This document shows, piece after piece, positions 27,945-59,600 of a stretch of DNA of 64,000 nt. Made by a program: the position numbers and the translations under genes. The notes under the pieces were generated by a model that was not told the origin of the DNA, did no database searches, and saw only the letters and a list, made by a program, of their open reading frames with translations. Location: assembly GCA_944989445.1 (NCBI GenBank), contig CALYLW010000058.1, forward strand, positions 186,001-250,000, written 5' to 3'. The stretch comes from Ampullaceana balthica. Lineage: Eukaryota; Mollusca; Gastropoda; Lymnaeidae. Position 1 is the first letter of the stretch. Every line of letters starts with the position of its first letter.

Positions 27945-30900
27945 CTATGCTGATGATGAATCCTGTGAATCTAACAACAAGAACAAGTCACTAAGTCCAG
28001 CAGCTTGGCCAGTGGTACCAGCAGAAATGTTGGGAGGCTGCAATCCTAAGCCAAATGGGTCCAAAACTTGATCACCAAAACCAGATTCAAATGGGTTGGT
28101 GCTTGGTGGCCGGGGCGGTAGGGGTGGCGGAACTCTGTCAGATGACTCGAGCCTAGTTTCAAGTGGATTTGAACTGGGTGACCTTTGGGGGATTGGAGGA
28201 GGAATGTTTGTGGCTGACCTTTCTTCAAACAAATGGCCGCTTGCTGGTCGCTTGGGTAAGGGTGGAGGGTTCCTGTCCTGAACTTGAAATTTACCTTCGG
28301 ATGGGTTTGTACTTGGGGCAGTTTGTTGCAAAACTAGGAGAACTGGATCACAAGATTGTGGTGCTTCTTCACAGATATTAGTGCTAGGTTTAGGAACAGG
28401 TGGGGGAACTTGCTCAAAAGGTTTTAATGTTTCCTCACAGGTATTAGTGCTAGGAGGGCGTTCAGGAACAGGTGGGGGAACTTGCTCAAAAGGTTTTAAT
28501 GTTTCCTCACAGGTATTAGTGCTAGGAGGGCGTTCAGGAACAGGTGGGGGAACTTGCTCAAAAGGTTTTAATGTTTCCTCACAGATATTAGTGCTAGGAG
28601 GGCGTTCGGGAACAGGTGGGGGAATTTTTTCTAATACCTGAAGGTTATCCTCAAACAAATTTGTGCTTGGTGGACGCTCTGGGACTGGAGGGGGGACCCT
28701 TTGTGTGGACTGAAATTTGTCTTCACAAAGGTTTGAAATAGGGGGACGTTGAGGCAAGGGGGGTATTAGTTTTTCAAAAAGATGTATGCTCAATGGTCTT
28801 TCTGGTAACAGGGGAGGAACTTCTTCCTGCAGCACTTTGCTAACAGGCACAATCCTTGTAGCCAAAGAGTCTGATTTATTATTGAAGGAAAGATGACCAT
28901 ACACAACTTCCTGACCTTTGTGTTGTGGACCAGTTGGCAGGCTTTGAGCCAAACTTGATGATATTGAGGTAAGAGGCTGAGAGTCAGTTGTATGGGACAA
29001 AGGGTGACACTTGCTGGTATCAGGAAGAGGCTCTTCTATATACAGATCTGTTGTTTCATCATACAGAGCAAGGTCATTTTCTTCTTCATGTGAACTACCT
29101 GAGTCTTTTATGTCCTGAGGTCCAAGGGTTAAGGGGGAGGTCTGATTGTTGACATGTGTTGTCTTTGAATGAGAACTCAAATCAGCTTTAGAAACGCCTA
29201 ATGTTAATGGTTTTCCAGACACACCCAGTGACTCCACATCAGCTGGAGAAAGACTGCCACTTGGTTTAATATCTATTTCAATATGTTTCTCACAACCTTT
29301 TTCCAAAAGATTTATTTCCACTGTAAGAATCTCATCAGATTCAAGTATCACAAGCCCAGTGCTATGGGAATTTTCCTCAGTTTCTACATTATATACATTA
29401 GCACACAGATGATCCGAACCCCTGGGTTTATCAGTTAAATCTTGAGTAGTTTTAGAACCGGTGACAGGACCAAGCTCTAAGTTTTCAGCAACATGTGATT
29501 GGGACTGAAGTTGCTCATCTGTCAACTCTGTTCCATCCTGATCTAATGTTGTGTTTGAATCACAGATAAGTGGATCACTTTCGTCGATTTTATTGTCTGC
29601 ACAAGGTGATTCACTCCTGCACACAGATGCTGAACTGTCTGGGAAACTGGCCCAATTTTCTTCTTCAGCCTCATCTACCGTTTCACCAAAGAAGCTGTGA
29701 GGAGTTTCATTTTGTTGTATATAAAGAAGCTTAGGGGCATTAGAATATTCTTCATAGGGTGAACTGGCAGACAGTCTAGGAGCTGCTGAAAGCTTGGGTG
29801 AAGTTGTTGGGGTAATAGTTGGTGGGATCAGGACCCTACGAGGTGACACTGGAATTTGTCCATCCTCATTGACAACCAATGCTGATTTGGTGCGGCTAAA
29901 GAGAATGTCTTCAGCAAATTCAAAACAAGTTTCATCAGAGTCTTTACGTCGCGCACTTTGTAACTTTGGAGTTTTTGGTTTAAGTGTAAACTCATCACAT
30001 GGAAGTGTTATTTTGAGTTTGTCAGGAATGGCAGAAGGTGGAGCCGGTGAGGCCTCAGGGGAACTAATTGTTGCATATTCATCAAGTGTGACAACACTGA
30101 TGGGTGTGTGGCTACGAGGGCGGGCGATAGGTGATGTAGTTACTCTCAGTCGTTCAATTCGGCGCTCATAAGCTTTGCGCTTTGAGGGTGATAATATTTG
30201 ACTTGGATCAATGTTGTCAGGCACAAGATTGGACTGACAGTCTCTTTCGCTGCCGAGGTCACACAAGTTACCATCCAAGTCTGAGGAATCCAAGTGTCCC
30301 ACAGATGGACGTGCTACGTGGAATGTTGGAGTGTTTTCATGACAGGACCCTGAACTGGAAGATGAATCAGAGTCCTGTTTTTTAATTGGAATAGAGACTC
30401 TGCCAATGGTCCCCTGGCGACTCAAAGGTTGAACTGTTGAAGTTTTCTGATGATCTTCTTCTGTCTCTCCAGATCTGACAGCTGGTGTAAAATCCTGCTT
30501 TAACTGATTAGTCTCAGGTGGATTAACAACGCATTTGCCAGCTTCAACTAATGTGGAATCCGTGGGAGCGAAACTGTTTTCATTTCTGTCTCTTGTGCTT
30601 TCCTCCTCTCCACCACCTTTGGATTTGTCCCTAGCAACCTCTGCATCTTTTCCTCCTTTGTCTTCCCCGCCTGCCAGGGACAGGGACTTTTTAGAATTGT
30701 TTCCCCCTATGGTTTCAGATTTTAAGCTCCCATCTGAACAAAATACTTTTGTAGCGTTAAAGTTTAAGACCTGTTGAATGGCTGCACTATCCCCTGAGCA
30801 ATGTGTAGACTGGCCACAGCTTGTGTTAGCATCCTCATCACCAAGATCAATAGTATCAAATGTTGCAAGGGGGGCTTTTCCAATGTCCACTCGTCTAACT

Positions 30901-30955
30901 ATTCTATGTTTGATGTTTAAGGCCCTGTGCATAGCCAAACTTTTGGTTCCACCCC
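27945..30955 (-). CDS. Large terminal exon of a proline-rich NPF-motif protein
   Basis: A continuous frame of about 1000 codons runs on the minus strand from a splice acceptor (TTTTCCAG, ending at 30956) to a stop at 27945. No ATG opens it at the 5' edge and the frame continues to the acceptor, so this is a 3' exon. Residues 1-45 include a conserved-looking basic segment (GTKSLAMHRALNIKHRIVRR). A long Ser/Thr/acidic low-complexity region follows. The C-terminal third has repeated SH3-ligand-like motifs (PPPVPERPPSTN), four of them in near-identical 24-residue tandem repeats. It then has PPLPPRPPSTNPFE with a true NPF motif, and a DPFG motif. In known families NPF binds EH domains and DPF/DPW binds AP-2, so an endocytic or scaffold adaptor role is plausible. 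I do not recognise the orthologue. Confidence 0.85.
28381..28700 (-). repeat. Coding 72-bp tandem repeat in the proline-rich exon
   Basis: Three nearly identical 72-bp units plus diverged flanking copies encode PPPVPERPPSTN followed by an acidic CEETLKPFEQV segment (24 residues). Units further out carry LF, PS or PL where the last unit has PF, so only the final copy keeps the NPF motif. The near identity at the DNA level shows recent expansion inside an exon. Confidence 0.93.
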
Positions 30956-32920
30956 CTGGAAAATTAGAATTTTATATGATTTGGTCAATTAAAATAAGAA
31001 ATAATTCATGTTATCAAGTCACTCCTAAAGTTATTAAAGCACATCATCAAAAATGTGCTTATGACTTTTTACATTGATGAGGCCTTTAAATGAAATCATC
31101 ATAGGAAAAATTTCAAATTATATACATAATAAGACATATAGCCATGGATAAGACTAATGATCAAAATTCAGCAGCTTTTGTGTTTACAATTAGACCAAGT
31201 TTAATTTTAATGCTGTCAATGATATGAGTGAAATTTCACGACCTATAGAAATTTTAAAAAATGGCAATGAAGATGAAAATAGGGTTAAATCAAATGTGAT
31301 TAACAGAGGGTTGTTTAAATAGTTTCTTTTACAATAAACATTGTTTATGTTATAAGTTTAAATTTTGCATAATTATATTCTTAAATCATAGTTTTCTGAT
31401 GTGTAATCCCTCTAAATCTTTCAGTAAAAATAATAGACAAAGGTCTTAAAAAATTTAAAGGTTCATATATTGTGGATAAAGATGTAGTAATCTCAACAAC
31501 TATTATAAAAAAGGTTAAAACATACTGCTTTAATTTTCGGGTATCTCTATAAAAATAAATGTTAACATCTGAACTAGCATTAAAATTAAGAAGATTCAGT
31601 TTTACTACTTTTGATCTAATAGTTAATATAACAGTTAAATATAATGATTGAACTTTTCTACAGAGAGCCTTGGATTTAGGTAAAATTAAAATAAGTCAAT
31701 GTCATCAGAGAATTTTAAATGATGTGTTTAATTTTTTGTCTTATACATAACAAAATACATGCAGAGCATTTTTAACAACACTATTCACTATATGAATTTC
31801 TAATTCAATTTAAGTCAAATGTTTTGATTTAAAATTATGGGGAACAAAATAAAAAGCAAAACTAGGATTAGTTAAAGTCACTGCATCTGACATGCAATCA
31901 CATTAGAAGAGTGAAAAGGTGTAGAGAGATATATCCTTCCAAGTTGACACATAAATTCAAAAAGATGGGCAGCATTTGCAAAAATAAACTAAATTACACA
32001 TGGAATAAACAAACAGTTGAGGTCCATCTACATAATTTTGATTATCCATATGAGGCATGTGATGCTATTTTCCACACACAGGATGTTGAACATATATTGG
32101 ATGCACACAGAACACAAACTGATTTATGGTAAACTGAATTAATATAGGTTAAAGATGTTATATTTTACTTTGAGGAGAAAAATGTGCAATGCCATTACAT
32201 AAACTCAAACTCTGTAAAACATAAAATTGGTATAAATTTTCCTGTTTTAAAGTTTTCTCCTGAACTTGAATTATTTTCATTTCTAGACTTACATATAAAG
32301 AAATGATATGACATGTCCTAGTTAAAAACTATTTGGCTCAGTTTCAACTCTCAAAGCATTCCTGGCTGGAAAAAAATATTTGAATAGCCCATGTCGAAAT
32401 CGAAGATAGTAATAATATTAATAGAAAGTAGAAAACCTACTACTATTTCATATGCCTTTGACTGCAGTTACACTTTCTTTAAAAAATTATTTAAGCAACA
32501 ACCGGGGAAAATAAATAAAATAAAATAATAATGAATGTATGATTTAACTATCTTTTTTCTTAAGACTATCTTTACTAACTATAGTGTCATTAGTCTATAA
32601 TAACTATAAGCCTAAACTAAATGGACTGAGTCAAATTAAAAAGATATCCAATAAACAGATTTCAATACTGTCAACACACTTCACAAAACACCCACCACAA
32701 AATACAATCCACAGATTTTTAATATAGGCATAGGGCCTAACCCTACTACAAAGTTACTAACTACTGACTAACACTTAAGTTGTCAATAACAGTTTCAAAT
32801 GCCCAAAGTAAAATTTAGAAAAATTAATGAATAAAAGATAATTTTTACAGTTATTTATACATTATTAGGTCTTTCAGTATTACTTATTTAAACATTAATC
32901 AAATATTGAATAATGCTTAC
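30956..32920 (-). other. Presumed intron of the proline-rich gene
   Basis: AT-rich sequence upstream of the acceptor at 30956. The candidate first coding exon (ending 32921) finishes in a phase that does not match the exon at 30955, so a further small exon may be hidden here. I could not identify it. A 73-codon plus-strand frame at 31911-32132 has no family features. Confidence 0.45.
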
Positions 32921-41600: not shown

Positions 41601-44600
41601 AAGGATTGAGAACATGCTTTGGGTATTGGCACGCATCAAAACCTCACTATTTGGCCATTTAATGCCAAGGATGTGACGCAGGCATCTCAAGTGGAAGCTA
41701 TTAAGCTTGCGGTCATGTGTAAGTGGTCCATGTCTAGCTCCTGTATAGCAGCATACTGATGATGCATGCTCGATAGACACACAGTTTGGTTTTCTCCGTT
41801 AGCTTGGTGTTTTTCCAAAGCTGTTTATTTAGTTTAGCCATTGTAGCAGCTGCCTTGCCAATTCTACTGTTAATTTATTCCTTGATGGACAGTGAATTGG
41901 AGACCTTGGACCCCAAGTAGGTGAAGCGGTCCACAACCTACAAGTTTTCATTGTCGATATTGATGGTAGGAGGAGAACATGTGTCTTGGGTCATGATGTT
42001 TGTCTTTTTTAAGCTGGTTTGCGGACGAAATTATTTGCAGGCAATGGAGAAGCTTGACACGAGTTGTTGCAAACCAGTTTCTGTGTGTGCTATCAGTGCA
42101 GCAGCATCCGCAAAAAGTAGCTCGTGAATTAGGACATCTGTCGTTTTGGTTTTTGGCTCGGAGGCCAGCAGTGTTGAAAATTCCTCCATCAGCTCTGGTG
42201 TATAACCAGATTCCATCTCTGCTATCCTTGAATGCGTTGACAAATAAGCAATCCAGTAATTCAAAAGAATTTATTTCAATTATTGCTAATACTATTTTTT
42301 ATCTATGTTTCTGTTACTATGTTTTACCCACAAATGTTTCTCTCTCCTTGATCTAAATTAATATTTCAATGTTCCACCCCTATTAGTCCACAGATTTGCT
42401 ACATCAACAATATATTCAAATTCCCATAAAACAACATAAAATATAATGCACTAAGAGAACTCAAGTTATTTATTGTATTACTCTCTAAATGTGCTTGGGT
42501 TGTTTATATAGCTTCAGTCAGTCAGTAATGAGGGTAATAATATAATAGATTGCCAAAAATTGTCTAAACTCTGGCTGATTTTAAAGAAAATAATGAGGGT
42601 GAGACTGCAACCAGGCTTTTAAATTAGTAAATGTATAACCTATAACATATAAACAGGGTATGAAATGGACTCTACTGGACTCATTGGATTTCACCGCAGC
42701 TAAGTTTTTTTATTCTTTCGTTATTTTCGTTTTATTTGTGTACTATTTGTTTGTTGAGGAATGCTCTTTACCGAAATGTTCGCTATTTTGTTACGTCCTG
42801 TCAGGCTAACTCATACCCTATTTAAATGTTATACTTTGGCTGATTTTAAGCAGTTCATGCTTATAAAATGAAATTTTAAGCAGTATGAATTCATCGATTT
42901 TGTGTGCAAGGGTATAATATAGAAAAAGTCATTTTGCCAAACGATAATCGCAAGACAATGATTTTGAGTGTTTAAATTTACTCTTAAGGAAAATAATTGA
43001 GCTTCATCATAAAATATACATATATAAATAATGTAAAAAAATCCAAGCAACGTCTTCGTATAAATACTTTTTTCTTACCTCTAATCTAATAAAAGCTATA
43101 TTCTTAACTCCCCTACTTTCTCTTTCATTGCAAAGAGAATAGTAATGTTTGCCAGAACAGAAAACAAGTTTTGTAACATCTGAAGGAGATACATCAGGAT
43201 CAAGCAACACAGGCTGAAAGTGAGTGCCTGGTTCCATGTCAGACAGAGATGAGGTAGCAGCAGGCAATCGTAGAATAAGCTTTGGAGCAGCAACAACCAT
43301 TGGTTTGCGAAAGTTACGAACCATCTGAAGGAATAATTTGAATTTCATGAAAAAAAGAAACATTTTGTTATCAACCCTATTTTCTAATGGCTTCCATTAT
43401 ATTGATTTTTAATAAGAAAATAATCATTGATTAAATTTTGAATGAGAGGAAGAAGAAGTAATTCTAAAGAATTTAAATTTTGATTCGTTGATAGTTCAAC
43501 CCATATTTGATGCTAATCATATACTGTGTACCAAGCACTAGACTTTACCTGTCTTCTAAGCAGATGAAAATACTGGGCTGGGGTGGTGGGATTGACAATT
43601 TGAATGTTTACATCATCACCATCTACTTCATCTTCCCGGCTGTCACATTGCTACAATAAAAGACAATTTGAATGTTTACATCATCACCATCTACTTCATC
43701 TTCCAGGCTGTCACATTACTACAATAAAAGACAATTTTAAAACTATTTTTTTAAACATTACAGACGCTCACTCCCATTCTGTGCAGAAGATTCTGGCGTC
43801 CTTCTTTCTAATTAGAATGCACAGACCACAGCTATAAGGGGATTGTGTGGCACAATTCCCAGTCACCATTGTTTCCCAAACAAGTGTAAGGTACCCATTC
43901 GGAGCTGGGTGGACTCGGGGGCACCCTTAGCCATGGGAACAAGCCCCTTCCTTCAAAGATATTAGAACCCAGAACTTTGGTATGCCAGGCAAGCGCTGCT
44001 ATCATTAATTAATTTAGAAAGATAACCAGCATTGTTCTGTAGAGCACTAAATTCATTTAAAAAAGGAAATCTCCATTATCACAAAGTCCCTCACTACAGT
44101 CTAACTTTTATGGTACATTTTTAATAACGCAATAAATGAAAAATTGATGTATTGAAATTGAACTCCCAGAATTCCTTTATTTATTAGTATTTAAGCCCTA
44201 TTCGGGATTAAAAGAAAACAAATCTTCTTGAATTATTAATAACAGGGTTTGACCCTATATGCTCATATGGTCATCTTGCAAAATACCTGTAAAATGCCTT
44301 ACCTGTAAAATGCCTTGCCTGTAAAATGCCTTACCTGTAAAATGTTTTACCTGTAAAATGCTTACCTTTAAAATGCCTTACCTGTAAAATGTTTTACCTG
44401 TAAAATGCCTTACCTGTAAAATGCCTTACCTGTAAAATGCCTTACCTGTAAAATGTCTTAACTGTAAAATGCCTTACCTGTAAAATGTCTTACCTGTAAA
44501 ATGTCTTACCTGTAAAATGCCTTACCTGTAAAATGTCTTACCTGTAAAATGACTTACCTGTAAAAATGTCTTACCTGTAAAATGTCTTACCTGTAAAATG

Positions 44601-47600
44601 TCTTACCTGTAAAATGCCTTACCTGTAAAATGCCTTACCTGTAAAATGTCTTACCTGTAAAATGCCTTACCTGTAAAATGTCTTACCTGTAAAATGCCTT
44701 ACCTGTAAAATGCCTTACCTTTAAAATGCCTTACCTGTAAAATGTTTTACCTGTAAAAAGCGTTCAATCCTACAAGAAGAATGCTCAGGACCAGCTCCAT
44801 CCATGCCATGAGGTAACAACATCACCAAGCCTGACTGAAGGAGCCATTTTACTGAAGGGGAGAGAACAGTTCAGACAACTCAACATTATTTTATTTTAAA
44901 TTGCACAAGAAATGTTTAAAAATTGTTTAAATACAATGAAAGTAATAATTACAACATAGGCCAACTGGTCATTGATTTAAAAATCCTATCTTGAATAAAA
45001 TCTTAATTCAGGTTTATTTGTGTCAGAAATTTAAAAAACTATTTTCTAAAGAAATTTTCTTTTCAATAGTGATAAACCTAAATCAGCAGGGGACAAAGTG
45101 TCTGTGATGGTCTTTATTAGGGGACAGCCAGATATCCGGAATGCCGAATATTCGGACCGGATATCGCGATTTTTGCCACTATTCGGATTCGGCAAATACT
45201 TATGGCAGATCCGGATATTAATGGAGTAAAGAATTTTTGAATTCAAATTAAAGTAATATTAAGAAGTTTATATACAAATATATAAAAAGTAAAAAACAAT
45301 AACCAGTAATCAGTACATTTAACAAGAATGGATAGTGAGAGCGCATTCAGCACAGCAGGGAAGATAAATGATGATAAGCGTTCTCGCTTGTCACTGAACA
45401 AACTTGGGATGTTATTGTTCGTGAAAAAGAATTTGGGTATGACAAACACTTAATTTTTCATAACTTAAAAATTGAAGAAACAAACTACAAACTTAAAGGT
45501 AACAAGTACTGCTGAGTACTATGTTACAAATTACTAGTAACTAGTAACTACTAATTAGTAACTATTTTATTTACTCATGTCATTAAATTATATAGCTGAT
45601 ATATTAATTTAATATTTTAAAAATAATAATTTTATGTTAAAAAATAATAATTTTAAGTTTAATTTGTAATTATTAGTTTAAACTATAAACTTAAAAGTTA
45701 AACAGGAGCCTTGGAAACTGGGACAGGCTGAGTGTTGGCTTTTGTTTTTAACTTCTTTGTCAGTGACTAGTACGCTTACAGCAGTCAATTATTCTTCATT
45801 ATCTTATCTATACAGACGCTCCTTCTATACAGAAGATTAATGCGTCCACAGACCATTCCGGTCTGTTGGCAAGTGATGCAGCATTCACAGGCCTCTGCTA
45901 TAAGGGTTCCACGCATTACCCAGCCGCTTTTGTTAGGTACCCATTCGGAGCTGGATGGACTCAGGGACGCCCTAGGCCACGGGAACAAATCTTTGCCTTC
46001 ACAAGGATTTGAACCCGCGACCATCGGTACACCAGCCGAGCGCGCATGCCACTCGACCACCGTGCCCCTAATTACTGTGTACTTATATGATATAAGTTAT
46101 ATCATTGTAATAATTTTATATTCTTTGTTGTTTTTTTCAGTTGAACTTTAAATGACAGCTGCAATTGTGATTTTATTTGTGAACTTAAAAATAAAAATGT
46201 TGCTTGTCTCTTTAACACATGTTATATCTTATTCAGTCTTATAATTTTAAAACTCTACTCTATTGTGAATATTATAATTATACAAAATAAGTTAAATAAA
46301 AAATTAAGTTATACATTAAATTATTAATATAGAACAAAATAAACAAATTAACAAGCGTTGATTATGAAATCATTCAAAGCCATGTAAAATATAGTAAAAC
46401 AATTTGAATACGAGAAAAAAATATTAAGTTAAAAATATTACTCTACTACGTAAGATAATAAACTAAGTTAACTGACAGCATTTTAAATGTGAATCGTCTG
46501 AATAAAAGGACAGTTTTTATCATGGCTCTAGATCACGACTTCTTGTACACCACACTACACACTCAGTACAACAATATTCGCTTGGTACACACTACAAAGT
46601 TCGCTGAACTTCGTTCACGTTCGTTCATTCAATTCATTGTAAAATGTTCATCGTTGACGTTGACAGTGTCACAAAGTGTCATTTTAGATGGCAGCTACTA
46701 TTCATTTGTTGGATAATAAATAATTTAATAAATAGTATTAAATTCTAGATATAAAATAGAAAAGTACACCCTCTTAGCTCTTACACTTAAATGTGGAGAT
46801 ATCAATTCCGAATTCAGCAAATATTAGGGCCAAACTATCCGGATCCAGCAAATAGTAAAAAACCCTATCCGGCTGTTCCCTAGTCTTTATATTATTATTA
46901 GATCAATGTCTTACATTCTCCGGCAGTGACATACGTGTCTATGATGGTCTGTGCTGCATTGAAGAAATCCCCAAACTGTGCTTCCCATATAAACAATGTG
47001 TTGGGGTCGTCAACACTCATGCCATACTCAAAGCCCAAAACACCTTCTTCTGACAGGACACTGTTGGCAACCTGAGGGAAAATTGAGGTTTTTATATGGG
47101 AACAAAGAATGAAATTTCCAAGTTAACATAGAATAACTGGTTATAGTTATAGGTATCTGCAAGTTTGTTGTTGATCTAAGCTAAAGCTACAATTTGTGTT
47201 TGAGGTGGATATATGATCATATTAATATTAATGGGGATTTAGGCTCAAGTTTGATGTTGATCTAGGATCAAGTTTGATGTTGATGGAGGATCAAGTTTGT
47301 TGAGGATCAAGGATCAAGTTTGATGTTGATCTAGGATCAAGTTTGATGTTGATCTAGGATCAAGTTTGTTGAGGATCTAGGATCAAGTTTGTTGAGGATC
47401 TAGGATCAAGTTTGTTGAGGATCTAGGATCAAGTTTGTTGTTGATCTAGGATCACGTTTGTTGAGGATCTAGGATTAATAATGTAAGAAAGAACATTTTC
47501 TCTAAACATTACTTTGTGAATGGGCAAGCATGAACACACTATGTCCCAAATATATTCACCTTAAAAAAATATCAAAACAGAGACCTAACAAAATCAACAA

Positions 47601-50600
47601 TCACAGTTGTTCAGATCTGCTGGTTCTCATAAGTTGAGACCCGCTGACTCACACCCTTTACTGGTCCCCTCGTTCTAGTAAAATGACAGGAATCTTGACA
47701 CATAGTGGACCAAGTGGACCAATAATGAGACAATAGAACATTAACTTTAGTTTCCCCTAGCTCAGCCTATAAAATAATGCACTGGACATGATTTGTCCTC
47801 TTTTAAACAAAAGTCGCTTGATTAGAGCCTGGCTAGCTATGTTAGTTTTGAAGTTTGCCCTGAATTAGCTAGCCAGTAAAGTAAAGTCAGCTGGTGTCAG
47901 AGTATCAGTAAGTCAAAGAGCTCAGTATTGTTTAGTGAGCAGATAGCGGTCAGTTGACTTGACTGACTCTAGCAAAGATAGGGGCAGATAGCGGTCAGTT
48001 GAGTTGACTGACCCTAGCAAAGATAGGGGCTGATAGCGGTCAGTTGACTTAACTGACCCTAGCAAAGATAGGGGCTGATAGGGGGGGGGGCTGATGGGGG
48101 GACTGATGTGTTACCAGACCAATGTACATCAGTACAACCTGAATCATTTGTGAGAGTGGGGTGGGAGTCACTCTTGTCTTCTAGACCCAATACGAGGACA
48201 CACAGGAGATCACGTGACCAGAGAAGACAACCCCATGGTTGTAATCAGTAGTATTCTTTATATTTACAGTTGAAACATGTTAGATTGTTGTTATTAGTTA
48301 TCTATAGCTACATTAAATAGTCGTTGATAGAGGAAATATTTTTTTATATACAAGGTGTTTATTAAATGTTATTTTCTGACTGGTGACAGAAGGGTTGGTA
48401 ACTTTTGTTTAAGAACTACACTAACATAGGTCAAAATAGTGTAAGAACTATACTAACATAGGTCAAAATAGTGTGAGAACTATACTAACATAGGTCAAAA
48501 TAGTGTAAGAACTATACTAACATAGGTCAAAATAGTGTAAGAACTACACTAACATAGGTCAAAATAGTGTCAGAACTACACTAACATAGGTCAAAATAGT
48601 GTGAGAACTACACTAACATAGGTCAAAATAGTGTGAGAACTACACTAACATAGGTCAAAATAGTGTGAGAACTACACTAACATAGGTCAAAATAGTGTGA
48701 GAACTACACTAACATAGGTCAAAATAGTGTAAGAACTACACTAACATAGGTCAAAATAGTGTAAGAACTACACTAACATAGGTCAAAATAGTGTGAGAAC
48801 TACACTAACATAGGTCAAAATAGTGTGAGAACTACACTAACATAGGTCAAAATAGTGTGAGAACTACACTAACATAAGTCAAAATAGTGTAAGAACTACA
48901 CTAACATAGGTCAAAATAGTGTAAGAACTACACTAACATAAGTCAAAATAGTGTAAGAACTACACTAACATAGGTCAAAAAAGTGTAAGAACTACACTAA
49001 CATAGGTCAAAATAGTGTAAGAACTACACTAACATAGGTCAAAATAGTGTAAGAACTACACTAACATAGGTCAAAATAGTGTAAGAACTACACTAACATA
49101 GGTCAAAATAGTGTGAGAACTACACTAACATAGGTCAAAATAGTGTGAGAACTACACTAACATAGGTCAAAATAGTGTGAGAACTACATTAACATAGGTC
49201 AAAATAGTGTAAGAACTACACTAACATAAGTCAAAATAGTGTAAGAACTACACTAACGTAGGTCAAAATAGTGTAAGAACTACACTAACATAGGTCAAAA
49301 TAGTGTAAGAACTACACTAACATAGGTCAAAATAGTGTAAGAACTACACTAACATAGGTCAAAATAGTGTGAGAACTACACTAACATAGGTCAAAATAGT
49401 GTAAGAACTACACTAACATAGGTCAAAATAGTGTAAGAACTACACTAACATAGGTCAAAATAGTGTAAGAACTACACTAACATAGGTCAAAAAAGTGTAA
49501 GAACTACACTAACATAGGTCAAAATAGTGTAAGAACTACACTAACATAGGTCAAAATTATATAATTTCAAAGTGAATCATAAGTCATCCAGTGATGAGAC
49601 AAACGGCTTTTTAAAAATAATGGTCACTCCAACAATAATGGTTGGCATGTACCTCAAGGAAATTAGTCTGTGTTGCTGAGATGTCATTGAGTGGTATGTA
49701 GATATCAATAATGGATGTTGGATGAGATGTCATTGAGTGGTATGTAGATATCAATAATGGATGTTGGATGAGATGTCATTGAGTGCTATGTAGATATCAA
49801 TAATGGATGTTGGATGAGATGTCATTGAGTGGTATGTAGATATCAATAATGGATGTTGGATGAGATGTCATTGAGTGGTATGTAGATATCAATAATGGAT
49901 GTTGGATGAGATGTCATTGAGTGCTATGTAGATATCAATAATGGATGTTGGATGAGATGTCATTGAGTGCTATGTAGATATCAATAATGGATGTTGGATG
50001 AGATGTCATTGAGTGCTATGTAGATATCAATAATGGATGTTGGATGAGATGTCATTGAGTGGTATGTAGGCATCAATAATGGATGTTGGATGAGAAAGTT
50101 CCAACAAAACTAACATCAAATAAAATTAACAAATGCTGGTTCAATTCTAAATTTAAAAAAAAACTATGCAAACAAAAAGAAAACTTATTTAAGAAATTTA
50201 AGGCTACCAATTTAAAAAGGATACACAAAAAATACTTAAAGCTTAAACACTTGACACAAAAACTTAGTCGAAATCTCCACAATGAATATATAAACAATGT
50301 AATTTCTAAAGATAACAATAAAAAATTATGGTCCTTTATTAAATCTTTAAAAAAATGGAACCTACAGGAATGGCCACACTAAAAGACCCAAATAATAAAA
50401 CCTATAATGATAATGAAACCAAAGCTAATATCCTCAAAACATATTTTGCATCATAATTTTCGGCCTCAGCTGACAAGGAAGTTTTAATAAATTTAAATAA
50501 AATAGAAGAAATAGGTAACATAACTGTAGACGAGATAGGTATACATTCACTTCTAAAAAACTTAAAAATAAAAACATCTACTGGTCCAGATGAATTGCCT

Positions 50601-53600
50601 GCAAAGTTATTAAAAGAACTAAGCAATGAAATTAGCTAACATAACACCCCTCTTTAAAAAAAGTGATAAAACAGACCCTGGTAATTACAGACCTGTATCA
50701 CTTATTAGTGTCACATGTAAATTACTAGAGCACATAATATATAGCAGAATAGTTAACCACCTAGACAAATATAATGTCCTATACCCACATCAACACAGCT
50801 TTAAAAAAAACAGATCATGTGAAACACAATTAATAGGTTTAATAGATGATCTGTCAAAAGGCTTAGACAAGAATGACCAAATAGATACAATATGACTAGA
50901 CTTCTCAAAAGCATTTGACAAAGTTCACCACTTAAGTTTACTAAAAAAACACTTAACTTCTAAATCTCAGGTCCCTTATATCATTGGATCCAAGACTTCC
51001 TTTTGGGTAGAGAGCAAACTGTAATAATTAATGGATCTAACTCTGCACCAATAACAGTTAACTCAGGAGTTCCACAGGGAACTGTGCCAGGTCCTTTACT
51101 CTTTTTAATTTTTATAAATGATTTACCCAAACAACATCTCAACAGGAAAAAAAGTTAGGTTATTTGCTAATTATTGTATAATCTATAGAACAATTAAATC
51201 AGAACAAGATAGCCTAATCTTACCAAAGAAAAAACTTAGAAGAGTTGATAAAATGGGAAACTAACTGGAGTATGTCTTTCCACCCAGAAAAGTGTCAACA
51301 AATAGCTTCCAGATTCATTACTGGAGAATATTCAAAACTTACTAGAATAACACCATTAATTAAGTTGCTAAACCTTGAACCACTAGAGGATAGAAGAAAC
51401 AAGAGTAAAGTAGTAATAAGACATAAAGCAATTAATTCTAATTTAGAAACTAATTTAGATAAATTAATACAACCCTAAGATAGACATAAGGATAAAAACA
51501 CCTTTCTTATTCCATATGCAAGAACAAACACATACAAATTCTTGTTTTTCCCATCCGGAATTCTGGCGTGGAATGGGTTGCCTGAAGAAACCAGGAAAAC
51601 TAACACTTTATCAACATTTAAAACTCTAATAAGAATGCAGGACTAGGCACAAAGCATAGATAAGCGTAGGACGCAATAATATTCTGTATAGAAGGAGCGT
51701 CTGTAACAGATAAGATAAGATGAAAAAGTTAGCATGTACCTCAAGGAAATTAGTCTGTGTTGCTGAGATGCCATTGAGTGGTATGTAGATATCGTCAGTC
51801 TCCTGGTCCACTATCATACAGTGTCTATGGCTAAATGTGCCTCGTCCAACATCTTGGCCACTGATTCTCACACTGAAACCTGGTCATTTCTCAATAATTT
51901 AGGTCATTTCAAATCTAACAACATTTTAATCTAGAAATTGACACGTTTCATTTTAAAAAAGAATGGGATTGCAATAAATCTTTTAAATAAATTAAAAGAG
52001 ACAGATAATGTTATAAAACAAAATGTTATGTTTTAATAATAGACAGTAACCAGGTGTACATTTAATAATAGACAGTAACCAGGTGTACATTTAATAATAG
52101 ACAGTAACCAGGTGTACATTTAATAATAGACAGTAACCAGGTGTACATTTAATAATAGACAGTAACCAGGTGTACATTTTTCAGTAAATCCCTTCTTAAT
52201 TTATATTGTACATGAAATTTCCATGACATCTATTATAAACCCTAACATTGACATTGTGCTAGGCACACAATTCCTCGTATGCCATGGCTATAACAACTCG
52301 TGAACACTGCTTCACTTGCCCCATAGGCCAGCATGGTCTGTAAGGGGAACTTTACTTTTTTAAATCCTTTATATTAACTTGTGGTGTCTGAGCCCTTGCT
52401 TGTCGATAAAACTTTGGATCGACTTTTAACCCACTTCCTAGTAAGCTAGCGAGCTGAAATTTTGCAGGCAGTTTCATGCCAATGATAAAAATGATGTATC
52501 AAAATTTCAGATAAATCGAATGTACCGTTATTAAATAAATGAATTTTTTAGAGTATCTTTATTTATCTCTATGTAACATGTTAACTTTTTTTGCTATAGT
52601 GTCGTGGTGCGTATTATATTGAACAACCTTTCCTGTTGCGCAATAAGGTGTGTATTTTATTGACAAAACTTTTTATAAACATATTCCTGATCGGTGCGCA
52701 TTATATTAAACATATTTTACGACACATAACTACAATTTTGTATTTTTGGATGGTCTTGCGCTGCGTATTATAATGAACACTAGTGTATTACCCGTCAAAA
52801 ATGACGGAAGTTTTCAAAATAAATACATTTCAGCTGAAATCTATTTATTTAAAAAAAATACACATCAAAATAAAAAGTAATGTAATACTGAACTTTTAGT
52901 TATTTTATTTATTTATATTTTATTCATTTATATACAATTTGCACAATTTTATGTGGAACGTTGGAAAAGAGTTATTTTTGGTGCAGTTATTTGGTGCGCT
53001 GCGTTCTAAAATTAACGGACAGGCAGACGTGACACACATTGCAAATTATGTATGTTGATTCTTTTAGTTACGTCTTGTACATAAAGGATTTATAGTCAAA
53101 AATTTGTATTTTACGGGTTTTTTAATTACTACCCTAACATAAGAAATTTAATTTATCAAGTGGAGAAAATAGAAACAAAGCAACCTACCTTGATGCAGTA
53201 AAGACCCAAAGGCAAGGGCTTCGGCAGTAGCCCAGTCTATGTTTGATCCTTCTGTCAAACGCTGAATCCTCCTGTCAATATGTGTTTTTTGAATGGTTGG
53301 GTGAACTCTCTAAATGAAAAAAAATGTGGTATTCCAATTTTAGCTGCCATATTCTTAGAATCACAATTTAAAAGTCAAAATGTTTACATCTTCCACATTA
53401 TTTTAAAAAACATAAAATTCAAAGTGAACCATGAGGATAATTAAAATATTTGGTAACCTCATAGTGAAAAACAGTAAAATAGGAATACACAATGCAGTTA
53501 TTTTTCCTACATATTCTGAGTAGAAATGACAAGCCTATAGAGAACATTTAACAGCATTATTACATTCTTTAATTAGATACAAATACTTCACACATCTTCA

Positions 53601-56600
53601 ACAATACATTTTTATGCAAAGTCTTATGACTGTAAAGATCAAAATCCTCTATGACCTATAAAATGATTGGGTACACACATGACTGTAAAGATCAAATCCT
53701 GAAATGGCCTATCAAATGATTGAGTACACACATGACTGTAAAGATCAATTCCTTAAATGTCCTACCAAATGATTGGGTACACACATGACTGTAAAGATCT
53801 AAGTCCTTAAATGTCCTACCAAATGATTGGGTACACACATGACTATAAAGATCTAAGTCCTTAAATGTCCTACCAAATGATTGGGTACACACATGACTGT
53901 AAAGATCTAAGTCCTTAAATGTCCTACCAAATGATTGGGTACACACATGACTGTAAAGATCTAAGTCCTTAAATGTCCTACCAAATGATTGGGTACACAC
54001 ATGACTGTAAAGATCTAAGTCCTTAAATGTCCTACCAAATGATTGGGTACACACATGACTGTAAAGATCTAAGTCCTTAAATGTCCTACCAAATGACTCG
54101 GTACACACATGACTGTAAAGATCTAAGTCCTTAAATGTCCTACCAAATGACTCGGTACACACATGACTGTAAAGATCTAAGTCCTTAAATGTCCTACCAA
54201 ATGATTGGGTACACACATGACTGTAAAGATCTAAGTCCTTAAATGTCCTACCAAATGACTCGGTACACACATGACTGTAAAGATCTAAGTCCTTAAATGT
54301 CCTACCAAATGACTCGGTACACACATGACTGTAAAGATCTAAGTCCTTAAATGTCCTACCAAATGACTCGGTACACACATGACTGTAAAGATCTAAGTCC
54401 TTAAATGTCCTACCAAATGACTCGGTACACACATGACTGTAAAGATCTAAGTCCTTAAATGTCCTACCAAATGATTGGGTACACACATGACTGTAAAGAT
54501 CTAAGTCCTTAAATGTCCTACCAAATGACTCGGTACACACATGACTGTAAAGATCTAAGTCCTTAAATGTCCTACCAAATGACTCGGTACACACATGACT
54601 GTAAAGATCTAAGTCCTTAAATGTCCTACCAAATGATTGGGTACACACATGACTGTAAAGATCTAAGTCCTTAAATGTCCTACCAAATGACTCGGTACAC
54701 ACATGACTGTAAAGATCTAAGTCCTTAAATGTCCTACCAAATGACTCGGTACACACATGACTGTAAAGATCTAAGTCCTTAAATGTCCTACCAAATGACT
54801 CGGTACACACACAGACTTGGCTCCAACAAACTTGAGGACATCTTGAGGCACACCAGTATCCCAAGTGGTCAAATGATCTCCTGCTTGGACCAATGTTGAC
54901 CACTGACCATTCAGGTGAAAAGGCTAAACAAAGTGATAATGTATAAGTCTCATACAAATCATAATATCTAGCCATGTCTTTCATGAATTTGAAGGAAGCG
55001 AGCACATTAACTAAAAAATAGAGTAAGTGAGAGAAGTGAATGACTACATATAGAGCAGATATGAATTGGGAGTAATTAGTAGACCTTGCATTAAAAAATG
55101 TACATTGGCTACAGTATATAAAGCACAGAATTAAGGACATTTTTTCATTTGACGTACTTAAAAATGGACCAAATAATTTTTATGATTTATTATTTAGTCC
55201 TCATTGATAATATCTTCCAGAGTAAAGACTCAAAACTCCCTTTTCAAACACACTTTTCTTTCATTCCAACACAACTGAAACAAACCCTATATTAAATGAA
55301 AAAAACAACAACGAAACAATAAGCAATTAATAAACACTAAAGTAGAATGATAACATCTTACAAGCCTAGCATCAGATTAAGAGATGAGTTCTATCTCACC
55401 TTTGTTTCATGGGTAGCCATCTGTATCAGATGATCATCTAAGTAACTGGTCCAGGATGTTACACATTCTTTGAAAGTTTCTGCATCACAAACTCCAGATT
55501 TCTGGGACATTGTTGTGTAATTTTAAAATTAGTTTGTTCTTTTTTAAAATCCCTGCATAATCCAGTAAATAAAAACAGAATATTTCATAGTTAAGTAACC
55601 CATGAATCAATTGGCAGTAAGGACATTAAATAAGAAGTAAGGGCACGCAGAGGGACACTAGGTCACTCACAACAAGAGACTGTGAATAAAGATCTGGAAT
55701 ACTTTTCCTGCTGTTGATAACTTGATACATTTTTGGCTGAGTAAAAGCTGGCTCATCTATTTCATTGTGTCCCCACTTGCGATAACAAATGTAGTCAATG
55801 ATGACATCTCTTCTAAATCTTTGACGGTATTCTAAAGCAATTGCGGTTCCTCTTATAACATCCTACAATAAAATATCATATCATGAGGAAACAGTCAGTG
55901 ATAAATATATGAAGTAAACAGTAATTTACTAGTGGAGTTTGAGCAGCATTACACGGAAATATCTTTTAAGTTCACTCCTTGCAAATAAATATCCAGCTAA
56001 CAAAGCTTTAGTTGACAGTAGGTAAAAGCATTTGTAAACTTACTAATACAATGCTAGTCTAGTAATCTGATTGCTAGTGAATCTTTGTTGAAATTAATTA
56101 ATAAAAAGACAATTGAAAGACTCTCATAACAAAAAAGTTCAAGATGAAAAATTTCATAACTTAATGGCCAGTAGGTGCCCGAGCCAACTATCTATTTTAT
56201 TTTTATATGTAGGTACATAAATATGTTAAATATATATATATTTTCAGTTTTATTTCAATGAATGTTTTTTGTTTTGTGCTTAAAAAGGTATTAAATTTTA
56301 ATTTATATTTTTTGTTTTACAGAAATTGTCTGTGTCTTAGTAAACAATAAAGCAGATGTGTAAAAAACTTACTTCAGGATAATCTCCATTGACATGTATC
56401 ACAGGGTAGCCATTTATTTTAGCTAAATCACTGCAGTAGCGTGATGACCTGAAGTTAAACATAGAAAATTATATTCTTTTCCCGTGTAAAATAACATTTC
56501 ATTAAATCAATTTAATTGCCTGGAACTTTAAATATTTTTTTTAATTACTTTTATAGATAATTTCTGATCAAATTTAAGTGTAAATTTTACAATTAGAATA

Positions 56601-59600
56601 ACTTTTATTGGTTAACAGTTACATTAAATAACTATATGAAATTATAGATTACATAATACTGAATATATCAGTTTGGAAAGTGTTGAGATCAGCTGGTGTC
56701 ATATGTTGAGACCCACTGACTCGTATCCTTAGCCCCATTGTACCCCCAGGGCCCAAACAATGACAGGGTCCTTAACCCATGGTGGACCATTTATAAGTCA
56801 AGGCTTGAAGCGTCCCTTTAGTTGCTCATCCTATAAAATGAAGAATTGGATGCAATTTGTCCTCTTTTTCTCATAGCGGTTCTTGGTGAGAGCCTGGCTA
56901 GCTACTTTAGTGTCGAAGTTTGCTTGCCCTGAATTGGCTCGGTTGGTTTGTAGTAATAATTCCACAGTGTTATTTGTATTATATAATTTGAGTGTATTTT
57001 ATAACAGAAGATATGATTAACTATAGAATTAAGTTAGTGTAGGAACTGGATGTTGCATATCTTGTATTTGTGTACTTTATAATTTCTATCGCAGGAAAGA
57101 TCCTTGCCAGAATCCTTCTCAACTGCCTCATGGTCCACCTTGACCAAGGACTCCTGCCTGAAAGTCAGTGTGGATTCCGAAAAGAGCGAGGAACCATCGA
57201 CATGGTGTTCGCTGCCAGGCAGCTGCAAGAGAAATGTCAGGAGCAGAACTTCAACCTGTTCTCCACCTTTGACACTGTTGGCAGAGAGGGTCTGTGGAAG
57301 ATCATGGCCAAGTACGGTTGCCCAAGGAAATTCATCGTCTTGGTGAAACAATTCCACGAGGGCATGCAGGCCAGAGTCCAGGACAGTGGAGAGTCTTCTG
57401 ATCCTTTCCCAGTCACAAACGGGGTCAAGCAGGGCTGCGTCCTGGCACCAACACTGTTTAGCCTCATGTTTTCCGCCATGCTGACAGAGGCCTTCAGAGA
57501 CGAGGATGTTGGTGTCAACCTGAGGTACCGCACAGATTGCAAACTGTTCAACCTTCGGGGGCTCCATGCAAAAACCAAGGTTATGACAGACATCATCAGA
57601 GACCTGCTGTTTGCTGATGACTGTGCCCTCAACACTGTCTCAGAAGCCGACATGCAACGCAGCGTTAACCTGTTCTCCAGCGCCTGCACAAACTTTGGTC
57701 TGACGATCAACACCAAGAAGACTGAAGTCCTGAATCTGCCTGCGCCTGGTAGGCCCTATGTTGAGCCCAACATCACTGTCAATGGCCAGAGACTCAACAC
57801 AGTGCACCGGTTCACATACCTAGGCAGCAGACTGTCGCAAAATGTCATCATCGATGACAAAGTGAACGTCAGAATTGCCAGAGCCAGCTCCACTTTTGGC
57901 AGGTTGTATCCAAATGTCTGGAACAGAAGAGGCATTACCATCCAGACCAAGCTGACAGTATACAGGGCAGTGGTGCTCCCCACACTGCTATATGCGTGTG
58001 AAACATGGACTGTGTATCAGCGCCATGCTAAGAAGCTTAACCACTTTCATACAAGCCTCAGGAAGATCCTCGGCATAAAGTGGCAGGATAAAATTCCAGA
58101 CACAGTGGTACTGACCAAGGCAGGTCTCCCCAGCATCTTCACCCTCCTGATGCAGTCCCAGCTTCGCTGGGCAGAGCATGTGGTCCGACTGCCAGATGAG
58201 AGACTGCCAAAGAGACTCTTCTATGGCGAGCTCCAGCATGGCCAGCGGTCCCACGGTGGGCAAAAGAAACGCTTCAAAGACACACTGAAAGCGTCACTGA
58301 AAGCGTTTGCCATCAACCCAGACACGTGGGAATGTGCTGCAATGGACTGATCCACCTGGCGTTCTTCCATCTATGAAGGTGCCAAGTCATGCGAGGCAAA
58401 CCGGATCACCGCCACAGAAAAGAAGAGGGAAGCCCGAAAGGCCCATGCTGTCAACCCTCCTGGAGATGTCCCATTCGTCCCTTGTCCCTTCTGTTCCCGA
58501 ACCTTCCGTGCAAGGATCGGCCTCATCAGCCATCTGCGCACGCACAAATACAGCCAGTCCCAGCAACCCTCGGCGTACTAGAGTGGTCTTCGTCGAATCG
58601 ACGGACGAACAACACTTTATAATTATTATTTCTAGCCAGTAAGCCCGGAAATGTTCAGTGAGCTGGTTCGAGTCAGATAGTACTAGTAAGCTTAGCTTGA
58701 CTGATACAGGGCGTCTACTGGGGCTGACCAGTGGAGTGCAGTACTACCCTGATTGTATGTGAAAGTAAGAGGTGCTCTAACTACGAGGACACCTAGGGGA
58801 CCATGCTGCTGGATTAAAGAGAAAGCTGTGGTCATTTTTCGTAGTAGCTTTATAAAATCTTGGATCATTATATATATACTGTTATTTATAGTTACAAGAG
58901 ATTGTTGTTGATTGTTCTCAGTAATGTCAAGAGGTAAAATTTCTTAAATGTTATATCTGTTGGCTGACAGAGGTGTTGGATTCTTTATGCTAGTGTGAGA
59001 AGTAGATCAATGATAAACGCAGAATTGATCAAACAATAACATTGAAATATAATATAAACATATAAGTTTTGTGATAGTTATGTTACCTTCCCCTTTCAGA
59101 TTCTGTAGTGAAGCCAACTTGGTTATTGACAATCAGATGAACACTTCCACCAATTTCAAAATGAGGCGTGTTTGCAAAACAGAATGTTTCAGCCACAACA
59201 CCCTGTCGAGTTGGTAAATAAATTAAACCCAAAATGTTTACTTTTATCAACTCTTGTTTTAAAGAAACTCTTGTGAAATATTGTAAAACCTTAATATGTA
59301 ATAAAAATGTCTATATCCTGATAAATGTGAGTGTAGAATTTGACATTTGAAAAAGATCCAATTACTCATGGAATTTACCTGGCCTTGAATATTTAAGGAA
59401 AAAATCAAATACCTGGCCAACAAAGCTTGCATCACCATGCACTTGCAAACATAGCACATCATTGCCAGGAAGAGCACTGTCATTGTTGCTGTAGTCACCA
59501 GATTTCCTGGACTGAAGTTTGGATCGAGCTTTTCCAACTGCAACTGGGTTATTAGCCTACAGTAAATGTAAACTATAATTATCAAAACGTCTGGAAGATG

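What the first reader, a model, noticed from the sequence alone, without database searches (positions are those of the whole stretch)
44281..44851. A 16-bp array that repeats a splice donor about 29 times next to the real one
Seen directly: DHTKD1 exon 17 ends TTTTTACAG/GTAAAA. The intron then continues as about 29 units of CATTTTACAGGTAAGG, of which about 27 keep CAG or AAG followed by GTAA. By 5' splice-site consensus, the copies (GTAAGG, GTAAGA) look better than the authentic donor (GTAAAA). Using the first copy adds 16 bases and shifts frame. Reading further meets TAA within a few units. The gene must either always choose the most upstream weak donor or produce many isoforms headed for decay. 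A minisatellite that is itself a ladder of donors could act as a U1 snRNP sink or a length-dependent splicing switch.
Basis: partly seen in the sequence, partly recalled or inferred. Interest (0 to 1): 0.82.

Follow-up and report, generated by a model that had tools for sequence, protein, structure and literature searches.

The report
Snail gene with repeated splice sites
In a snail-like genome crowded with short tandem repeats, the gene DHTKD1 carries one of its own exon-intron junctions about 29 times over, next to the real one; such copied junctions are known from amphioxus, and here they recur in this gene and in others, which gives a natural test of how cells pick the right splice site.

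Summary
On the minus strand a DHTKD1 exon (44851-44751) ends CGCTTTTTACAG|GTAAAA. The intron goes on with 29 units of CATTTTACAGGTAAGG; 27 of 29 keep [AC]AG|GT. By computed U1 pairing 24 of 29 beat the real donor, and all 27 alternative donors lead to a premature stop. A relative's protein fits the outermost donor joined to the outermost acceptor.

It is not a one-off. Another DHTKD1 exon (54923-54792) is followed by 19 further copies of its junction in 54-bp units, this intron's acceptor is duplicated (68 bp), and a 46-bp array copies part of a third exon. Of 14 other donor arrays examined (13 with their upstream edge in view), 3 start at an exon end. About 28% of 324 kb here is tandem repeat.

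This is the kind called 'mirage' in amphioxus (Adh3, globins, PGBD5), here in what looks like a lymnaeid snail. Best explanation: random minisatellite expansion seeded at exon junctions, tolerated because exon definition picks the exon-nearest site. A U1-sink or switch role is untested. Donor arrays are not consistently commoner than a reversed-motif control, and the long RNA hairpin is no more than tandem repetition gives.

The parts
44751..44851 (-).
   Evidence: tblastn and PDB comparison; acceptor CCCCTTCAG|TAAAATGG
44745..44750 (-). authentic 5' splice site GTAAAA, U1 duplex -8.3 kcal/mol
   Evidence: junction FLQ|QC in the Lymnaea stagnalis protein P0001
44284..44744 (-). 29-unit, 16-bp array of donor copies (mirage minisatellite)
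   Evidence: TRF, unit list, U1 duplexes
43651..44750 (-). host intron, 1,100 nt; the array is about 42% of it
43549..43650 (-). next DHTKD1 exon, [34 protein letters not shown]
43594..43737 (-). 68-bp tandem duplication of the acceptor plus 57 nt of that exon (copies 66/68 identical); the upstream copy of the exon begins TAA
   Evidence: TRF
54792..54923 (-). DHTKD1 exon ending ...KSVCVPSHL with donor TTG|GTAGGACA at 54791
53626..54811 (-). second donor mirage: 54-bp units (TRF 22.0 copies, 97%) that include the exon end; 19 further copies of TTG|GTAGGACA
   Evidence: TRF
49653..50095 (-). 46-bp array (9.1 copies) carrying 30 nt of the interior of exon 51880-51740, ending in a partial copy of that exon with its donor GAG|GTACATGC
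   Evidence: TRF
51740..51880 (-). intact DHTKD1 exon ...[18 protein letters not shown], which shares its sequence with the 46-bp array

Best explanation
The array is a 'mirage' minisatellite: a tandem expansion that began at the exon-intron junction and copied the last bases of the exon with the first bases of the intron into the intron, unit by unit, in a genome that is very rich in minisatellites. It is tolerated, not selected as a ladder. The exon is short (101 nt) and lies between long introns (about 2.06 and 1.1 kb), so it should be recognised by exon definition, and the site nearest the exon body is taken although its U1 pairing is weaker. The same rule fits the acceptor side, where the outermost (downstream) of two near-identical acceptors must be used because the inner copy starts with TAA. 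Shown: anatomy, computed strengths, frames, fit to a relative's protein, recurrence. Inferred: seeding from the exon end, exon-nearest choice, neutrality.
For: Exon end and unit share TTTTACAG and 12 of 16 aligned bases. The exon end is protein-conserved: FLQ at this place in nearly all of the 76 relatives, out of 120 fetched, in which the motif SSCR[ILV]ER was found (71 with FLQ, 2 WLQ, 2 FLL, 1 FLV), so the likely direction is exon to array. In the second array 5 of the first 7 copies keep 20 nt of exon exactly. The Lymnaea protein has FLQ|QC, the outermost pair. Of 14 further donor arrays, 3 start at an exon end: ABCA-like, both exons found; MYCBP2-like B-box, both exons found; EGF-like, upstream exon only, on weak Pfam matches. 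28% of 324 kb is array. With two identical CAG/GUAAGU donors in exon-defined minigenes only the upstream one was used (PMC9225289 section 8). Amphioxus RT-PCR suggests that mirages do not disturb splicing (PMC3087553 passages). In the 26 units of exactly 16 nt the first seven columns never vary while change falls in or beside the donor, the reverse of selection for donors.
Against: No RNA evidence of any kind. In the published minigenes the two donors were equal; here most copies are stronger than the real site. The same paper reports that in its first genome-wide tally most events in all four intron-length classes preferred the downstream donor; [quoted passage not shown] In PAH a strengthened site at +18 was used in 8/30 or 26/30 clones (PMC5933811 section 9). 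The exon-unit match is modest in DHTKD1 (9 of 13 outside CAG), and the ABCA-like array starts exactly at CAG|GT with no more exon in it by TRF.
Confidence: 0.74

Rival explanations
1. The ladder is a U1 landing pad that helps the weak real donor: U1 bound at the downstream copies strengthens exon definition while cleavage stays at the exon edge.
For: In PAH intron 11 a U1 site at +18 is needed for efficient exon inclusion yet scarcely used as a splice site (PMC5933811 abstract and section 9). Exon-specific U1s bound downstream rescue exon skipping (PMC4822034 abstract). The first array GT lies at +17, almost the same place, and the real donor is weaker than 24 of 29 copies.
Against: A few copies would do; 29 are not explained. 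Arrays with donors are not consistently commoner than the reversed control. In the EGF-like array (29 of 29 sites) and the ABCA-like array (23 of 28) the copies are just as strong as the real donor, and the second DHTKD1 array repeats the same TTG|GTAGGACA. No functional data.
Confidence: 0.14
2. Length-dependent switch: some transcripts use array donors and are sent to nonsense-mediated decay, so array length sets DHTKD1 level.
For: All 27 alternative donors lead to a premature stop; most pair better with U1.
Against: No RNA data. In the ABCA-like gene 23 of 28 alternative sites, and in the MYCBP2-like gene 4 of 4, add whole codons without a stop, so decay is not a shared design. Amphioxus mirages appeared to leave splicing normal.
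Confidence: 0.06
3. RNA structure hides the copies: the units pair with each other (UUUUAC with GUAAGG), burying the donors in one long hairpin.
For: Folding energy -118.8 kcal/mol, z -16.4 against dinucleotide shuffles.
Against: With shuffled units that keep the tandem repetition, 191 of 2000 fold as well, so it is a by-product of repetition. In a local-fold model the real donor looks no more open than 45 motif matches in the array region (0.002 v. mean 0.014).
Confidence: 0.04
4. Assembly or annotation artefact, or a dead gene copy.
For: Tandem arrays are prone to copy-number error in assemblies (general knowledge).
Against: No N in the 324 kb; the two exons that flank the array are open and match relatives; the exon gives one match in the genome search; the same pattern recurs at other exons and genes.
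Confidence: 0.02

Closest known systems
Mirage minisatellites of amphioxus (Adh3 of Branchiostoma floridae and B. lanceolatum; globins BflGb6 and BflGb9; PGBD5; troponin C)
   Same: Tandem repeats that span an exon-intron boundary; copied AG/GT signals in many but not all units; both donors and acceptors affected; Adh3 units of 10-72 bp include the sizes here (passages of PMC3087553 and PMC3902484).
   Different: Another phylum (nearest protein relative Lymnaea stagnalis, 92.3% over 285 residues). Here 29 and 19 copies, several arrays in one gene, and most copies of the first array stronger than the real donor; the amphioxus globin cases have between one duplicate and 6 units. The copy number in Adh3 was not in the passages seen.
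PAH intron 11 U1-bound site at +18
   Same: A good donor-like site just downstream of the real donor.
   Different: One site, shown by experiment; here 29 repeats, function untested.
Recursive (ratchet) splice sites with AG|GT (recalled; only a search listing seen)
   Same: Each copy has AG directly followed by GT, so each retained stretch is GT...AG (27 of 27).
   Different: A 1.1-kb intron, no long pyrimidine tract, no evidence of use.
Intron gain by tandem duplication of AG|GT proto-splice sites
   Same: Duplicated AG|GT gives segments with intron-like ends (model discussed in PMC3087553).
   Different: Here the copies lie inside an existing intron; no new intron is shown.

Membership tests
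Mirage minisatellite | tandem repeat spans an exon-intron boundary | tested here: met
   TRF 44284-44758 takes in 8 nt of the exon end; the second array repeats up to 20 nt of its exon
Mirage minisatellite | many but not all units carry the splice signal | tested here: met
   [AC]AG|GT in 27 of 29
Mirage minisatellite | donor or acceptor side may be copied | tested here: met
   donors, acceptor 68-bp copy
Mirage minisatellite | array edges escape homogenisation | tested here: inconclusive
   the first (exon) and last unit differ from the consensus, but units 2, 12, 18, 22, 24, 25 and 27 also do
Mirage minisatellite | normal mRNA splicing | not testable with these tools
   no RNA; only a relative's protein junction
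Mirage minisatellite | length polymorphism, also somatic | not testable with these tools
   one assembly; one match to the exon
Recursive splice site | AG|GT juxtaposed | tested here: met
   27 of 27 donors
Recursive splice site | pyrimidine tract and very long intron (recalled definition) | tested here: not met
   only TTTT before ACAG; intron 1,100 nt
U1-bound intronic enhancer | U1-complementary site shortly downstream of the donor | tested here: met
   first copy GT at +17, -11.5 kcal/mol
U1-bound intronic enhancer | its loss causes exon skipping | not testable with these tools
   needs minigenes

The most novel reading that the evidence does not exclude
Junction mirages are a genome-wide and self-forgiving feature of this snail lineage. 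Each unit is a GT...AG cassette, so a transcript spliced at any copy keeps an intron-like remainder between the real GT and that copy's AG, which a second splice could remove to restore the exact junction (27 of 27 retained stretches are GT...AG, 24 of them 60 nt or longer). The ladder would then be a buffered reserve of donors and U1 sites that shields a weak exon from skipping and lets arrays grow without cost, and in genes with in-frame units (ABCA-like 27 bp, MYCBP2-like 18 bp) a source of variable insertions.
Probability: 0.08. Interest if true: 0.85.

Novelty: new member of a known kind. Interest (0 to 1): 0.55.

Why it matters
Copied junctions let nature test splice-site choice: dozens of competing donors, equal to or stronger than the real one, at a regular spacing. 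If only the outermost is used, exon definition overrides U1 strength by a wide margin; if not, array length would tune gene output. Such arrays in a second phylum and in several genes suggest that minisatellite-rich genomes may make them routinely, a possible raw material for new introns, exons and isoforms. I do not claim that no earlier report outside amphioxus exists: the paper searches cover open-licence papers only, and I saw none in their listings.

Tried and rejected
RNA hairpin as a mask: striking z-score but gone with tandem-keeping unit shuffles (191 of 2000). Of 76 arrays (10-60 bp, 5 or more copies) in 324 kb, units are on average no more self-complementary than shuffles (mean z -0.08).

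Donor motif as a cause of expansion: in 324 kb only 1 of 162 arrays has it in its consensus unit, shuffles give 0.69 on average. Genome pattern counts against the reversed motif went both ways; they count overlapping triples, so a few long arrays can dominate them.

Donor energies against the rest of the gene: one search lists candidate donors near each exon end, but several boundaries are only approximate, so no ranking is claimed. COX1 for species identity: no match. Original Adh paper: not held, cited only through later papers. L041 and L043, whose arrays also start at their first CAG|GT or within 3 nt of it, gave no Pfam hit for the frames I tried and stay open. L037's array fills the whole fetched piece, so its edge was not seen. 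The remaining 8 were judged by reading frames and by eye. L033's exon has only Pfam matches below cut-off (EB E 0.0072); the L042 exon likewise (B-box E 0.001), with no significant PDB match; L042 rests.

In one search the computed stop positions are spoiled by a TAG that I left at the start of the exon piece; the stop quoted for the 54-bp array is read from the sequence (GTA GGA CAT TTA AGG ACT TAG) and from the ORF ending VGHLRT. In one search the loose motif matched 46 places, not only the 29 units.
Full report
What is there. The window's minus strand carries DHTKD1 (2-oxoadipate dehydrogenase E1). An exon at 44851-44751 encodes [33 protein letters not shown] and matches human DHTKD1 (PDB sequences: E 2.9e-10 for 27 residues of the exon alone, 2.8e-67 for 149 residues joined with the following exons). 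It ends CGC TTT TTA CAG | GTAAAA. From there a 16-bp tandem array runs into the intron: TRF 44284-44758, 29.7 copies. Listed one by one there are 29 intronic units; 27 have [AC]AG|GT, 26 have GTAA after it, unit 12 has CAG|GTAAGT. The intron is 1,100 nt and the next exon is 43650-43549.

Strength and consequence. RNA duplex energies with the U1 5' end (sequence recalled) give -8.3 kcal/mol for the real donor; of 29 copies 24 are stronger (down to -12.1), 2 equal, 3 weaker. All 27 copies with [AC]AG|GT, if used, give a premature stop; for the first it comes after the frameshift in the next exon, for the other 26 inside the array, after nine codons past the exon end.

Which site is used. No RNA data were available. 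A relative's protein gives indirect evidence: Lymnaea stagnalis P0001 reads ...[20 protein letters not shown]..., exactly the outermost donor joined to the downstream acceptor. The acceptor is itself duplicated: 68-bp copies, 66 of 68 identical, and the exon part of the upstream copy starts with TAA. So for this protein the site nearest the exon must be used at both ends. In PMC9225289 (passages and section 8 seen) minigenes with two identical strong donors and flanking introns of 365 nt used the upstream donor exclusively, while intron-defined cases favour the downstream one; the paper's first genome-wide tally, however, showed a downstream preference in all four intron-length classes. This exon is 101 nt between introns of about 2.06 kb (donor 46914) and 1.1 kb, so exon definition is the likely mode (inference). 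A further warning comes from PAH: a U1 site at +18 is hardly used (4/30 and 1/30 minigene clones, none seen in vivo), but when strengthened it was used in 8/30 or 26/30 clones (PMC5933811, abstract and sections 6 and 9).

It is not alone. Mapping the gene with the Lymnaea protein and comparing exons with the window showed that exon 54923-54792 (...[17 protein letters not shown]) is followed by a 54-bp array, TRF 53626-54811, 22.0 copies, in which 19 further copies of TTG|GTAGGACA lie at multiples of 54; 5 of the first 7 copies keep 20 nt of exon exactly, the other 2 keep 7. Read in the exon's frame the first unit meets TAG after six codons (ORF ending VGHLRT). A 46-bp array at 49677-50095 repeats 30 nt of the interior of exon 51880-51740 and ends in a partial copy of that exon with its donor. 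So four tandem arrays in this one gene carry sequence of a neighbouring exon.

The genome. The nearest protein found is from Lymnaea stagnalis (263 of 285 residues, 92.3%), then Physella acuta (82.5%), so the source is probably a lymnaeid snail (inference); the assembly is 1.097 Gb and a COX1 search gave no match. In 324 kb around the window 28% lies in arrays with period 7 or more. The pattern of three [AC]AGGTAAG at 14-34 bp spacing has 4,125 matches genome-wide against 2,651 for the reversed motif; with 14-18 bp spacing 261 against 671. I looked at 14 arrays: the 8 distinct ones among the places listed (a capped list, contigs C1 and part of C2), and the 6 CAG-type ones, five-base repeats and the window's own left out, among the places listed (also capped). 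In 13 of 14 the upstream edge is in view; L037's array fills its piece. Three begin at an exon end. ABCA-like...LSGGQKRKLSVACAFIGNAQ|GTAAGATC, human ABCA1 E 4.6e-8, 28 downstream donor-like sites, next exon TVFLDEPSSGLDP. MYCBP2-like (name recalled) B-box exon...GHQRQ|GTAAGCC with 18-bp units; both exons located by a recalled human-like query at C63:682077-682214 and 681552-681674. EGF-like: the unit holds about 21 nt of the exon end, 29 donor-like copies, downstream exon not recognised in the 4.6 kb fetched. Two more (L041, L043) start at or within 3 nt of their first CAG|GT but gave no Pfam match and stay open; in the other 8 I saw no exon by reading frames. In the ABCA-like array 23 of 28 sites, and in the MYCBP2-like array 4 of 4, would add whole codons without a stop; the first DHTKD1 array does not, and the second meets a stop in its first unit.

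What it is. Tandem repeats over exon-intron boundaries are called mirages in amphioxus: Adh3 with units of 10-72 bp, globin genes, PGBD5, troponin C; many but not all units carry AG/GT, and RT-PCR suggests normal splicing (passages of PMC3087553 and PMC3902484; the 2002 Adh paper was not held and not read). The array here meets the anatomical features of that kind; splicing and polymorphism could not be tested. What is new is the phylum, the copy number beside the globin cases, copies stronger than the real site, and the clustering in one gene.

How it most likely works. A junction was duplicated and expanded by ordinary minisatellite growth; copies on the intron side do no harm as long as exon definition takes the exon-nearest site. 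Per column, the first seven positions never vary in the 26 units of exactly 16 nt while variation sits in or beside the donor, which gives no sign of selection to keep donors. A U1-pad role is attractive because the first copy sits at +17 next to a weak donor, but it would not need 29 units, and in the EGF-like and ABCA-like arrays the real donor is as strong as 29 of 29 and 23 of 28 copies.

Negative results. The array folds into a long regular hairpin (z -16.4), but units shuffled and tiled do as well in 191 of 2000 cases, and arrays in the region are not generally self-complementary (76 arrays, mean z -0.08). Only 1 of 162 local arrays has the strict donor motif in its unit, against 0.69 expected.

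Noticed in passing
window 53626-54811: Second donor mirage in the same gene: 54-bp units that include the exon end, 19 further copies of TTG|GTAGGACA.
   Followed up: yes
window 49653-50095: 46-bp array sharing 30 nt with the interior of the exon at 51880-51740, ending in a partial exon copy with its donor, about 2 kb downstream in the next intron.
   Followed up: partly
L032 with L038 (C1:3709900-3716000): ABCA-like gene with a 27-bp donor array; 23 of 28 alternative sites add whole codons without a stop (9 residues per unit).
   Followed up: partly
L042 (C63:682000-682560): MYCBP2-like B-box exon followed by 18-bp donor copies that read VSHQRQ in frame.
   Followed up: partly
L033 (C1:2868500-2869900): EGF-like exon whose last 21 nt or so recur in a 29-bp donor array of about 29 copies.
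   Followed up: partly
window and L004-L029 (C58:156001-480000): About 28% of 324 kb is tandem repeat of period 7 or more, made of many different minisatellites.
   Followed up: partly
window 27945-30971: 1008-aa open frame without Pfam match, with an in-frame 72-bp coding repeat (28388-28653) giving repeated proline-rich PPPVPERPPSTN units.
   Followed up: no
window 57043-58350: Reverse transcriptase fragment of a retrotransposon (RVT_1, E 1.6e-22) in an intron of DHTKD1.
   Followed up: no
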